A stretch of 64,000 bases of DNA, taken from positions 28,414,650-28,478,649 of the forward strand of contig NC_134026.1 of the NCBI RefSeq assembly GCF_964204645.1, read 5' to 3'. Under the pieces are notes generated by a model. That model had not been told where the DNA came from. It saw nothing but the letters and a program-made list of their open reading frames with translations, and searched no databases. The number at the start of each line of letters is the position of its first letter. The stretch's first letter is position 1. Position numbers and translations under genes: made by a program. Shown piece after piece: positions 15,901 to 21,900 of the stretch. Source of the stretch: Tubulanus polymorphus (lineage: Eukaryota > Nemertea > Palaeonemertea > Tubulaniformes > Tubulanidae).

Positions 15901-18900
15901 TTACAGCCTTCTGGGGACCATGTTGATCAGCTTCATGGTATAGCAGCTTGTGAGACAGCTGATGTTCTGAAGAAAAATTGGCTGAGTAAGACTTCATAAA
16001 CCTCATAGTTGTTAATTATTATCTATTATAGAGCTTGAAATAGATGCTCCAGAGCTTTTCGCTCGATCTTTTCAGTTGAATTGCATAATAGTCAAGTGAT
16101 GCTTGCTGGTCCTGAGTCGGCTGGATACGTCATTGTATGTGCTTCAAAGGCTGAGATTTTAGCTTGTCAGCATCAACCAGTCTGGAGAGATCGACAACTT
16201 AAAGACAAGAAAACTTGGGTTGGCAGTGTAGAGGGCATGCAAGTAAGTAAATCATGCAAACTATATTATTCAAGTATGAACTGATTATATGTGCATGAGT
16301 TATGTATTTTCAGTATTATGCAACAGTAGATAGAGGTATAGATGATGAAGATGTCATGTGGTTGACTGAGGAACACATTATGGACCACTCAGAAGATGAT
16401 GATGAGAGTATAGCTGAGATGGCTGGAAGTGGACACTCAGTTGGTGGTGTGGTAACCGTATCTTCAGAACAGTCATGTGAGGTAATCATCATTTGGGAAT
16501 GAGTTGGTAGGATATTTATTTTTCTGTCATAATCTTTTCTAATACCGGTGCTCTGATTTTAGGATGGAGAAAACCCAAAACAACTACAACGGATCATATC
16601 TAAATGTAAATGTCATATCTTTTATGCAAGTTATAGTGAAGCAGATCCCACATCCTTTACTGAAGTTCCATTGCCGGTAACTGTCATGAAACATACTCGT
16701 CACAACAATTATCTAACAAGATGTACAAAACACTTCAAGTATTGTTTGTTTCTTTTCAAGCCAATCGAAAGCCAGAAGAACATGTTTGAGAAAGAAGAAG
16801 GCGTGGACTCACTGACTTTGCTGCACCATGACCTAAATATTTGTACCAATTCGGTATAGTAATATCACATATTACAAATGTTCAGAAATGGTTCACGTTT
16901 ATATTGAAGTAAATGTTAATTTACAGTTGCAGTACCTCATGATACTGGACCTTCTAAACAACCTTCTGCTGTACGTGGAGCCGAAGAAAAAGGTAAGTTA
17001 GGATTTTATTCTTTATTCTTTTATTTCAAGAGCGATGGCGTGAAAACTTCAATGAACATTTTATTCAAATTGTGGTTCAGTGCAGTAATAGTTTAGACAT
17101 AATTCATAATGTATATTCTCATAAAAACTAACATCTTTTCGATGACACCAGGCACAAACTGACAAATTACAATCGATGAGATTTGAACTACATCTGACAC
17201 GAATTGAAGACCAGAAAACACCAATCCTCGCCCTACAAGAGTCTCTGCGTAAAATGGTTCTCCGTCTAAGAGAATTAGAGCGTGAGTTGTACAACAAACA
17301 CCGGGAACTAGATGAAAATCCGTTCAATGAGGGGTAAGTACTATTTGATAATAACTTGATGCCCCCTTCATATCTCTTATCTTCTATGACAATTTTTCAG
17401 TTTGTTGGTCGTTAGTGGAGAACTGGAGCAGCAGATTAATGAATTAAAAGAAAAAATTGTCTCATCAAATGAGGAACTGGGAATTATGTTGAGCTGTTTT
17501 AAAGAAATGCACTTAGCACAAACTAAGGTCCAAGAAAAGACATCAAAAGGTAAGTCGGCGGTATAGATCCATTTTTTTAAAAATCAAATCAACATATTTT
17601 CATCATTTCGAAGGCAAATGTATTCTCTCCTTGAGTGCTAGCTATGTAGATTAGTATCGCCAATCTCCAACATCTAATGTGCCATTTCACTTATATGTAC
17701 AAGAATTGGCACATGGATATTGGCAACAGACTGATGGGTTTGTTCTTATTCAATTCACGTGTCACAAAATCCTAATGAGCAAGAATCAAATCTACGACCA
17801 GCACTTGCATGTGCTAATAACATAGCAAAACCAGCACAATGCAAGTTATGGTAACAGACCTGAAACAGTTCAAAAAACAGCTCAAAAGTCTCCAATCCCA
17901 GCACAGACCTGTGCTAGTATCATGAAAGAACTAGCACAAGGTATGTATCGGGATCGGAAACCATCAACATATATATATATATATATCCATTGAATCCATC
18001 CAATTGCTGTAAATTTCAAAATAATAACATGCAAGTTCAAATCTACGACCAGCACTTGCATGTGCTAATAACATAGCAAAACCAGCACGATGCAAGTTAT
18101 GGTAACAGACCTGAAACAGTTCAAAAAACAGCTCAAAAGTCTCCAATCCCAGCACAGACCTGTGCTAGTATCATGAAAGAACTAGCACAAGGTATGTATC
18201 GGGATCGGAAACCATCAACATATATATATATATATATATATCCATTGAATGATCCAATTGCTGTAAATTTCAAAATAATAACATGCAAGTTCAAATCTAT
18301 GACCAGCACTTGCATGTGCTAATAATCTATTTCACACACCAGCACAATGCAAGTTATGGTCACAGATAGTTGACTGTTTGTTAGACTGTTTCATTGTTGC
18401 CCATTCAAATCTATCACCAGCACTTGCATGTGCTAATGTAATATGGAGTAACCAGCACAATCCAAGTTATGGTGGTCCATCTGAAAGAATCCTCAAGTTT
18501 TAAGAAATCTCCTGTCTAGTAGATATCTATTAGCTAAGACGGTCCAACAATGACACATGAGGTTCCATTCGTGTTGTACCATGCAATAAACAAGTGCCAA
18601 CGCAAGCCTGTGATAGGGTTTTTTAACATGACCCACTCACGGACTTGCGATGGGACTTGTTTGATGCTAAAATATATTCTAGATGATGGAAATATGAACT
18701 ATCCCTAGCGCAAACCTGTGATATAGTAACTAATTCACAAAGGTTGCACCAGTAACAGTAAATATTATTTCGTTGAAGATGCCCAAGTCCAGTACGGAAC
18801 GATTATGACACATGTACATTTACAGTGAAAACTTGACTGCAGGAGAAGGTGAACTGCAATTTCCCCACAAACATGTGCTAATTTTAAATCACACACAAGC

Positions 18901-21900
18901 CCGATGTTTGAGGGGAAAACCTAGCCAACTAATTTTGACAATGATAGATCAGAATCTGGAGTAAATGTTAAGACGTTTTTCCCCACATACATGTGCTAAT
19001 TATCAGGAATCACAAGCTCACATATGTAGAGTCTAAAGTCATTAACAATGAGATGATGATATCACACAAAAAGGATTTTGAGTTTTGTAACTTTTGTAAA
19101 GGTCACGTCATATTCCCCCACATACATGTGCTAGTAAATACAACAACAAGCACAACAATGTCAAGGTACATGCCAATGACTAATGACACAACTTGATTGT
19201 ATTTTGACAAAAAATCATTTTCCCCACATTCATGTGCTAATATAGTCAATAAAAACCAGCACAATGAATGTAGGGTCAAAGAGTTCTGCTAATTTTGCTT
19301 TCCTGGATATAATTCACACATTTTCATTCAGACTAGCTCCAGTGCTGTGTGTACCAAAATCTATCCCCCCACATACATGTGCTAGTAACTATTTATCTAA
19401 CCAGCGCAATGAATGTAGAGGAAAATATTATGGTTTCCTTCTAAAATCAAGCAGCTTTTCAAAACTGCGTTGTTTAATATACAAACGATACCAGCACAGA
19501 CATGTGCTAATGAAATGTCTCTAACCAGCACAAAGTCTGTATTGGGTCCGATTTGTAATGCAATTAGTTGACGACAAAGATATGATGACACTGCTCAGAA
19601 CTATTTCCCCTACATATATGTGCTAATATTTTCAGCAATCAGCACAATAAATGTTGAGGACATAGATAGTCAGCTTTTCCCTGCGTGACACCTCTCCATG
19701 GTCTTTAAAGTTGTTGTCTAATTACTCTCATGAGTTCCCCTACAGTCATGTGCTACTCATGACCTGACCAGCACTAATGTCTGTAGAGAAACACAGAAGT
19801 GTTAATATCCAGATAATGATGTAACAATCCATGAAGCCTGGTTGCTGCCAGGTTGACACTTCCTGGCAGTGTAGACTGACACATTATGCCACCACCCAGA
19901 TTCTGCAGTTTCAAGATCTAGGTTCCCAGTTGCATCTAACAACATTTTTGACCTAAATTGTTTACTCTAAAGCATTTAAGTTGATGTACTTGTTATTTCG
20001 GTGTCCCCAGTACTCATATGTGCTAACTCTTTTTGTTTCATAAAGCAAGCCAATATAAGTACAAGGTACATGCAATAACTGTCCTTGCCTTCGATCCTAA
20101 AGCTGTAATGCTTATACATAGGACCGACCATATGCATAGCCTCTGCTTCTAAGATTTCCAAATTCCCTAAAATCACTGACAATTGATTAATTATGTTTTA
20201 GTTGCCACTAGGATTAAACCACAATGAAATCCTTTATGTTCTGGTCCTATTCACTAATCTTTTAGTTATGTAATAATTCTTTTTGGAATGTACTAATCAG
20301 GCCAACCATTGTAGAGAAATAGAGAACTTGCATTTTTGACTTATGACACACCCAGATATAGAGGGATGATGAGGAGAGTGACTCGTGAAAGGGTGAAAAA
20401 CCCAAATATATTGTGAGAAGATTATCCTTAAAGGATCCATATCATTAAAACTGATCTTTTATTTAAGTATAGTTTTAGGCTTATTTCAGCAACATTATTG
20501 ATACACATATTTATCTTTATTAGAATTTAGTTTTTAGTCCTAAGTTTTTTTTACCCCAGATACTATCATATATATTGAAACTCTAAAATTTCTCTAAAAT
20601 GCATTAGTTATAACTCTAAAATGTGGTGAGCTGTAGTTTTTTAGCTGTAGTAATTTAGAGAGACGTATAAAGAAGAGGTATATTAATTAAGCTAGACTTC
20701 CTAAACTACCTTGGAACAAAGATAAAGAATTGAGTCCTACATTTCTACGTTAATTTCGTTTACTTAAGTTAGATGATGTATTTTATGGTTCTCAGTTGCT
20801 CCTGGTTCTCAGTTGCTTTTTCCTAAAGTAGCCAATGTTTTTTTGTAGCCAAAGTTTTTTTTTCTTTTCCTAAGTTAACCTTCCGTGACACGCGTCTTAC
20901 CAAAAAAGTCATTAGTAAATCCTTTTTATTCCATTAGTAAATCCAATCCTTTAATCCTCAATCTGTAGTTGCCTTAGTGTGACTGGTGAAGTCTGGTGAA
21001 GTAGTGAGTTAGGTTGATGGAGTTGGTCTGGTTTTTATAGGCAGATCTCAGGACACCTGTGTGGTGTCTAGTGCCAGGCAAACTGAGATAGTTAGTGCTC
21101 AGTAAGTGACATTGTATCTCAGTCAACAATGCTACCAAACAATCCACTTGCTAATCAATTAGGCGTTAATTACTGGAAACGTTTTGTTGCTAGTGGAGCA
21201 AAGCATTGTTTGAATAATCAAGTGTGTGGACAAAACAAAACTGCAAACCTGCTTGAAGTTTGGGTTGTATATTGTTTTTCTAGTGATTAAGTAGGTCTTT
21301 TATTATTTGGAGCATATCTGTCTTTGATGGTCATTCATGAGATTGGGGACTTACTGATTAGATTATGACTGTTTTGTGTGAAATATGAACAGGATTAGGA
21401 CATGTTTGAAAAAAAACCTCTTTGTCTACTATAGTATAAGGCACCACTAAGTCTGATGACTAATTAGTATTAGTATTTACATAGATATAGATTATGAATA
21501 AATAATTGAATATAGCATTTTAGTCATCAAGCCCAATATATTTGGTTTTTTTATTTAAAACACAAAAATAGTTTTTGTTTCTCAGATGTTTGTTCAGTGG
21601 ATTTTCGTTTACACTTATATCACCATTTATCTTACAGTACAAATATATTACACTAACTTGAATTTAAAACATTTCAAATTAAAAGTTTATTATTTCTATG
21701 TTCATTGCATCCCATTCCATTACATCGCACAGTGAAATATAATTTTCGAAATATACCACAAGTAAAAAAAAGAGTCAAGAGAGGTCAAGAATATTCCAGC
21801 TCGAATTTTGACTATTACAAATAAATTCCATCACAACAGAGAATTTGAAATCTATTAGATTTTTCAACATAAGTAATATTGGTTGTTAAATTTTGTTGTG

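What the first reader, a model, noticed from the sequence alone, without database searches (positions are those of the whole stretch)
17659..20068. Intronic array of about 18 covarying stem-loops: candidate new miRNA cluster
Seen: about 18 imperfect hairpins of roughly 50-65 nt, all in the sense strand of BLTP2, mostly spaced 90-145 nt. Most share the apical block TGTGCT/AGCACA with a frequent unpaired A beside it, while the lower stem changes between copies on both arms together and remains paired. Known: clustered pri-miRNAs have this size, spacing and apical UGUG preference. Inferred: a lineage-specific polycistronic miRNA cluster released from BLTP2 intron 43, or another hairpin-derived small-RNA source. 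A plain palindromic satellite would not be expected to conserve pairing through compensatory change.
Basis: partly seen in the sequence, partly recalled or inferred. Interest (0 to 1): 0.9.

Follow-up and report, generated by a model that had tools for sequence, protein, structure and literature searches.

The report
Antisense microRNA cluster inside BLTP2 intron
One intron of the BLTP2 gene in a lophotrochozoan animal carries, on the opposite strand, 18 tandem hairpins that look like a real, rapidly duplicated family of microRNA genes sharing the start sequence UAGCACAU; it is a new member of a known kind of locus, and small-RNA sequencing could confirm it directly.

Summary
The array is real: 18 homologous hairpins at 17655-20077, unique in the 268-Mb genome, with pairing and two-sided changes far above shuffled, slid and tree-based controls. 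The strand was read wrongly. The structured RNA comes from the MINUS strand, antisense to BLTP2. Minus folds better in 16 of 17 units, with 61 G-U pairs against 9 on plus. Undoubted mir-2, let-7 and mir-10 hairpins of the same genome show the same sense/antisense contrast. Two further features seen only on minus are hard to explain otherwise. (1) Eight columns at the start of the 3p arm, UAGCACAU, are the most conserved 8-column run (3 inferred changes, against 19 in their paired partners): a microRNA seed with a sharp 5' end. (2) The CNNC motif, known about 16-18 nt past the Drosha cut, occurs at +14 to +18 in 11 of 16 units (12% expected). Geometry is canonical (22-nt 3p, 57-63-nt pre-miRNA in most). 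Two units carry the miR-2 seed UAUCACAG, the others UAGCACAU, UAGCACAG or UGGCACAU, so the cluster may be a diverged offshoot of the mir-2 family, which this genome has expanded elsewhere (14+ hairpins, mir-71 linked). Descent from mir-2 is suggested, not shown. No expression data were available.

The parts
17550..22022 (+). BLTP2 (Hobbit/KIAA0100) intron that contains the array
   Evidence: Flanking exons match PF10344 positions 1998-2042 and 2044-2080; GTAAGT donor at 17550, TTTTCAG acceptor ending 22022
17655..20077 (-). Array of 18 homologous pri-miRNA-like hairpins, antisense to BLTP2
   Evidence: Covariance model R1 finds 18 units on minus, 38-81 bits; both-strand folds; pair counts
17655..17735 (-). 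u01 hairpin; putative 3p UGGCACAUUAGAUGUUGGAGAU at 17663-17684
17788..17862 (-). u02 hairpin; 3p UAGCACAUGCAAGUGCUGGUCG at 17795-17816
17888..17962 (-). u03 hairpin; 3p UAGCACAGGUCUGUGCUGGGAU at 17895-17916
   Evidence: (-43.0 kcal/mol, z -9.1)
18039..18113 (-). u04 hairpin, near-copy of u02 (251-nt tandem duplication); 3p at 18046-18067
18139..18213 (-). u05 hairpin, copy of u03; 3p at 18146-18167
18293..18370 (-). u06 hairpin; 3p UAGCACAUGCAAGUGCUGGUCA at 18300-18321
18407..18483 (-). u07 hairpin; 3p UAGCACAUGCAAGUGCUGGUGA at 18414-18435
18586..18666 (-). u08 hairpin with miR-2 seed; 3p UAUCACAGGCUUGCGUUGGCAC at 18594-18615
   Evidence: best hit of the genome's own mir-2 model in the window; weak Rfam mir-43_2 match
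18694..18764 (-). u09 hairpin with miR-2 seed; 3p UAUCACAGGUUUGCGCUAGGGA at 18702-18723
18852..18927 (-). u11 hairpin; 3p UAGCACAUGUUUGUGGGGAAAU at 18859-18880
18970..19044 (-). u12 hairpin; 3p UAGCACAUGUAUGUGGGGAAAA at 18977-18998
19105..19178 (-). u13 hairpin; 3p UAGCACAUGUAUGUGGGGGAAU at 19112-19133
19211..19287 (-). u14 hairpin; 3p UAGCACAUGAAUGUGGGGAAAA at 19218-19239
19356..19432 (-). u15 hairpin; 3p UAGCACAUGUAUGUGGGGGGAU at 19363-19384
19481..19556 (-). u16 hairpin; 3p UAGCACAUGUCUGUGCUGGUAU at 19488-19509
19597..19670 (-). u17 hairpin; 3p UAGCACAUAUAUGUAGGGGAAA at 19604-19625
19727..19799 (-). u18 hairpin; 3p UAGCACAUGACUGUAGGGGAAC at 19734-19755
19997..20077 (-). u19 hairpin, first on the minus-strand transcript; 3p UAGCACAUAUGAGUACUGGGGA at 20004-20025

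Best explanation
A lineage-specific, tandemly duplicated cluster of about 18 canonical microRNA genes, transcribed from the minus strand (antisense to its host gene BLTP2) as a polycistronic primary transcript. Each hairpin would be cut by Drosha/DGCR8 (guided by the downstream CNNC motif) and by Dicer. The 3p strand would load into Argonaute as 22-nt guides starting U-A-G-C-A-C-A-U, with variants UAUCACAG (the miR-2 seed), UAGCACAG and UGGCACAU. Shown from sequence: hairpins, strand, compensatory evolution, seed-like conservation with a sharp 5' boundary, CNNC placement, geometry. Inferred: transcription, processing, arm choice, target repression.
For: Structure and covariation on minus exceed shuffles, arm swaps and a tree-based neutral-decay null (79.5% paired vs 66.2 sd 2.7; 69 two-sided cells vs 20.0 sd 4.8; 0 of 500 reach either). 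Strand: G-U 61 vs 9, minus more stable in 16/17; true mir-2/let-7/mir-10 genes of the same genome give 78 vs 25. Aligned stem cells on minus: 67 G-U but 9 A-C, where composition predicts 83 and 46. Seed: columns 57-64 have 3 changes vs 19 in their partners, p 0.0009, the lowest of any 8-column run; U in 16/16 at position 1. CNNC at +14..+18 in 11/16 distinct units, background 0.122, P 2e-7, near background at other offsets and on plus; the genome's true mir-2 genes peak at +17..+21. Loops 11-20 nt, 3p 22 nt, pre-miRNA 57-63 nt in all but u09. Arms conserved while loops and flanks diverge, e.g. u06/u07 5p 0.96, 3p 0.96, loop 0.33, upstream 0.38. The genome has let-7, mir-100, mir-71, mir-2 and mir-1994 sequences, a PAZ + RNase III gene (Dicer) and a second RNase III locus.
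Against: No small-RNA reads, no transcript evidence for an antisense primary RNA, no orthologous locus from another species. No unit reaches an Rfam gathering score. Some units (u07, u11, u13) are only modestly more stable than shuffles (z -2.2 to -2.7) and may be decaying. u09 has a truncated apical stem in the alignment. The +14..+18 window was chosen after seeing the data, though the motif's known place (+16-18) alone holds 9 of 16 units.
Confidence: 0.88

Rival explanations
1. Same miRNA cluster but expressed from the sense strand, released from the BLTP2 pre-mRNA intron.
For: Plus-strand hairpins also fold; several have z below -4.
Against: G-U/A-C asymmetry, lower stability, seed and CNNC all point to minus. 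All sub-threshold Rfam miRNA matches inside the array are on minus.
Confidence: 0.05
2. Neutral tandem array of quasi-palindromes kept paired by DNA-level template switching or gene conversion between arms, without RNA function.
For: Tandem duplication is active (201 of 201 identical bases in one 251-nt repeat); concerted arm changes can arise this way.
Against: Such repair is strand-blind and leaves Watson-Crick pairs, yet 67 G-U and only 9 A-C cells are seen. It predicts neither a conserved one-arm seed nor CNNC outside the stem. The unpaired base in the 5p arm persists.
Confidence: 0.03
3. Hairpin-derived endo-siRNA source or another structured antisense RNA, not canonical miRNAs.
For: Many related hairpins in one transcript.
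Against: Stems are short (about 30 bp) with conserved imperfections; one 8-nt segment is constrained and the rest drifts, the miRNA pattern rather than the siRNA pattern.
Confidence: 0.03
4. Dispersed transposable-element palindrome (MITE-like).
For: Inverted-repeat architecture; other inverted repeats occur nearby at 22.2-23.9 kb.
Against: Genome searches with 461-nt and 1521-nt pieces and with a loop-anchored pattern find only this locus.
Confidence: 0.01

Closest known systems
Ciona intestinalis 25-miR cluster (Ci-mir-2200/2201/2203; PMC2884542)
   Same: About 4 kb (here about 2.4 kb) of densely packed paralogous hairpins in a few families that differ by single seed nucleotides; lineage-specific recent tandem duplication
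   Different: Different clade and sequences; the Ciona cluster is supported by reads; here an antisense-intronic position and partial miR-2 seeds
mir-2/mir-13/mir-71 family cluster of protostomes (RF00047)
   Same: 3p-arm guide; two units carry the exact seed UAUCACAG and the others differ by one to three bases in the first eight; tandem duplication; the same genome has 14+ canonical mir-2 hairpins
   Different: 16 of 18 seeds differ; the lower stem and 3' half of the guide do not match; below the RF00047 threshold; not linked to mir-71, which lies on C3
miR-29/miR-285/miR-83 (UAGCACC...)
   Same: First six bases UAGCAC shared (from memory)
   Different: Positions 7-8 differ (CA vs AU); no Rfam match; resemblance only
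mirtrons and sense intronic miRNAs
   Same: Located in an intron of a protein-coding gene
   Different: Opposite strand, far from most splice sites, 18 copies

Membership tests
Canonical animal miRNA genes | Imperfect hairpin with guide within one arm, at least 16 paired bases in the guide region | tested here: met
   20-31 bp stems on minus in all 18 units; pairing within the 22-nt guide itself was not counted separately
Canonical animal miRNA genes | Arms separated by a loop of about 8-40 nt; geometry compatible with Drosha and Dicer (22-nt products) | tested here: met
   Loops 11-20 nt, 3p 22 nt, 5p 18-24 nt (mostly 23), pre-miRNA 52-63 nt, 9-12 nt lower arm in the aligned span
Canonical animal miRNA genes | Seed conserved more than the rest of the hairpin | tested here: met
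   3 changes vs 19 in partners, p 0.0009; conservation is among paralogues, not across species
Canonical animal miRNA genes | Microprocessor sequence motif (CNNC about 16-18 nt downstream) | tested here: met
   11/16 at +14..+18; 9/16 at +16..+18; optional motif in known miRNAs
Canonical animal miRNA genes | Reads from both arms with 2-nt 3' overhangs and uniform 5' ends | not testable with these tools
   No small-RNA data available
Canonical animal miRNA genes | Conservation in related species at the same locus | not testable with these tools
mir-2 family (RF00047) | 3p guide begins UAUCACAG | tested here: inconclusive
   Exact in u08 and u09 only; UAGCACAG in u03/u05; UAGCACAU in 13; UGGCACAU in u01
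mir-2 family (RF00047) | Score at or above Rfam gathering threshold | tested here: not met
   No RF00047 match in the window; model R2 from this genome's mir-2 genes gives u08 22 bits, E 4e-4, best in the window, no clear hit on the others
mir-2 family (RF00047) | Ancestral linkage to mir-71 | tested here: not met
   mir-71 sequence at C3:4556668, next to a canonical mir-2 cluster
Sense intronic miRNA co-transcribed with host | Hairpins functional on the host's sense strand | tested here: not met
   All strand evidence favours antisense

The most novel reading that the evidence does not exclude
The cluster descends from a mir-2 gene and records a seed switch: UAUCACAG to UAGCACAG to UAGCACAU by single substitutions, followed by amplification to 18 copies in a new antisense transcript, so that a conserved protostome microRNA gave rise to a large guide family with new targets, with both old and new seeds still side by side.
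Probability: 0.35. Interest if true: 0.6.

Novelty: new member of a known kind. Interest (0 to 1): 0.45.

Why it matters
Clusters of this size with one seed are uncommon and tend to be lineage-specific; where studied (for example mir-430 and C19MC, from general knowledge, and the Ciona cluster, PMC2884542) they are often fast-evolving, and the vertebrate examples are tied to germline or early-embryo regulation. Here stem divergence, seed conservation and seed variants can be read from one 2.4-kb stretch, which makes it a good test case for how a microRNA family changes its seed. It also shows that G-U/A-C asymmetry and CNNC placement can assign the coding strand of a hairpin array from DNA alone.

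Tried and rejected
Tunicate origin (suggested by the Ciona cluster): GH6 domain not found (inconclusive alone), then mir-71/mir-2 and mir-1994 sequences placed the genome among lophotrochozoan protostomes. Mitochondrial COX1 was not found in the assembly. Literature searches by KIAA0100 and by sequence words, first from the plus and then from the minus strand, found no published match; searches for mir-2 expansion papers gave only general context. mir-71 next to the array: none in the window. Array model R1 does not reach the canonical mir-2 loci at E 10, so model-level homology to mir-2 was not established. More units in 20078-22022: none convincing with filters off. RNAalifold on the plus alignment found only 8 pairs; the 30-pair structure was set from individual minus-strand folds, so percentages paired lean towards it. 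The second RNase III locus could not be identified as Drosha by domains.
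Full report
What is there. Between 17655 and 20077 lie 18 hairpins that share one alignment. They sit in a single BLTP2 intron, 17550-22022: the exon before matches the Hobbit model (PF10344) up to position 2042 and the exon after from 2044, with a GTAAGT donor and a TTTTCAG acceptor. Part of the array is a recent 251-nt tandem duplication carrying two hairpins per unit. 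DNA and pattern searches of the 268-Mb genome find no other copy.

More than chance. On the minus strand the figures rise to 80% and 73 cells against 32. Swapping arms among units costs about 10 kcal/mol on the minus strand, and none of 20,000 permutations matches the true pairing, also when only one of the three near-identical units is kept and when the shared apical block is removed. Because the units are related, I also let an ancestral hairpin decay without constraint along their own tree: 66.2% paired and 20 two-sided cells expected, 79.5% and 69 seen, with 0 of 500 simulations reaching either.

The strand. A hairpin in DNA folds on both strands, but G-U wobbles on one strand are A-C mismatches on the other, so an RNA under selection leaves a bias. 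The minus strand has 61 G-U pairs, the plus strand 9, and minus is more stable in 16 of 17 distinct units. Random windows elsewhere show no such tilt (mean difference +0.3, array -7.8 kcal/mol). As a positive control, 16 hairpins of undoubted families in the same genome give 78 against 25 G-U and are more stable on their true strand in 15 of 16.

Seed and 5' end. On minus the 3p arm begins UAGCACAU. Inferred changes in those eight columns total 3; their base-pairing partners took 19 (p 0.0009). No other 8-column run in the hairpin is as conserved, and the column just before has 6 changes. The first base is U in 16 of 16 distinct units. Constraint on one arm beyond what pairing needs, starting sharply at a U and relaxing after position 8, is what a microRNA guide predicts. 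Further along the same arm (positions 9-22) changes are 48, against 66 in the partners.

Processing motif. Animal Microprocessor substrates often carry CNNC about 16-18 nt beyond the 3' cut (established knowledge). Taking the cut 22 nt after the U, 11 of 16 distinct units have CNNC at +14 to +18, against a background of 12% (binomial P 2e-7); nine have it at +16 to +18. Offsets away from this window, and the plus strand, stay near background. The genome's canonical mir-2 genes peak at +17 to +21. Predicted products are 22 nt for 3p, 18-24 nt (mostly 23) for 5p, with loops of 11-20 nt and pre-miRNAs of 52-63 nt, all but u09 at 57 or more.

The organism. let-7 and mir-100 hairpins are linked (a mir-125-like core CCCTGAGACC lies in the same 10 kb). 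mir-71 is present as an exact 22-nt sequence next to a mir-2 cluster on C3, and the mir-1994 guide as three tandem exact copies. By established knowledge mir-2/mir-71 marks protostomes and mir-1994 lophotrochozoans. A PAZ plus RNase III gene (Dicer) and a second RNase III locus are present.

Relation to mir-2. The genome has at least 14 mir-2 hairpins in three places. In the array, u08 and u09 begin 3p with exactly UAUCACAG, the miR-2 seed, at the homologous position; u03/u05 have UAGCACAG, 13 units UAGCACAU, u01 UGGCACAU. These form a chain of single substitutions, and u09 and u03 are also similar beyond the seed. A model built from the genome's own mir-2 hairpins has u08, on the minus strand, as its best hit in the window (22 bits, E 4e-4, with roughly calibrated E-values; next hit 16.5 bits) but does not pick up the other units clearly, and the array model does not reach the mir-2 loci. 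Descent from mir-2 with a seed switch is thus plausible, not established; convergence by one substitution remains open. I do not file the array as mir-2.

How it most likely works. An antisense primary transcript starting above 20077 is cut into up to 18 pre-miRNAs; their 3p strands load into Argonaute and repress transcripts carrying AUGUGCUA-type sites. Transcription, processing and targeting are inferred; structure, strand, seed constraint and motif placement are shown from sequence. Modestly stable units (u07, u11, u13) may be decaying, as expected in a cluster under birth and death.

Comparison. The nearest precedent is the roughly 4-kb, 25-member cluster of Ciona intestinalis, whose families differ by a single seed nucleotide and which is absent from C. 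savignyi (PMC2884542). Tandem duplication as a route to clusters, including mir-2, is described for Drosophila (PMC3763532). The locus is therefore a new member of a known kind, made more interesting by its antisense-intronic position and by the coexistence of an old seed with new ones.

Noticed in passing
G000 C3:4553143-4556689 (L013), C2:21716367-21717838 (L014), C4:25613847-25613915 (L015): At least 14 canonical mir-2 hairpins in three loci, one next to mir-71 and one a seven-hairpin cluster on the same chromosome as the BLTP2 array: a marked mir-2 expansion.
   Followed up: partly
G000 C7:5222071-5222418: Three tandem exact copies of the mir-1994 guide sequence TGAGACAGTGTGTCCTCCCT.
   Followed up: no
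window 26501-35675 (+): What look like three tandem paralogous genes (ORFs near 26501, 30205, 33773 and 28389, 31997, 35154). Two compared pairs are 24-31% identical, with no significant Pfam family; the first exons look faintly TIR-like by eye.
   Followed up: partly
window 22145-23937: Inverted and direct copies of a TAGGTAAAAATCCCC-type repeat (arms up to 54 nt, 91% complementary) in the next BLTP2 introns, perhaps a MITE-like element family.
   Followed up: partly
window 17786-18366: 251-nt tandem duplication with a 201-base block nearly or fully identical between two copies and a (TA)n tract of different length: very recent, or copy number sensitive to assembly.
   Followed up: no
window 17655-17735 (-): u01 3p (A)AUGGCACAU resembles the 5p start of miR-263/183 (AAUGGCAC, from memory) but lies on the other arm; probably chance.
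   Followed up: no
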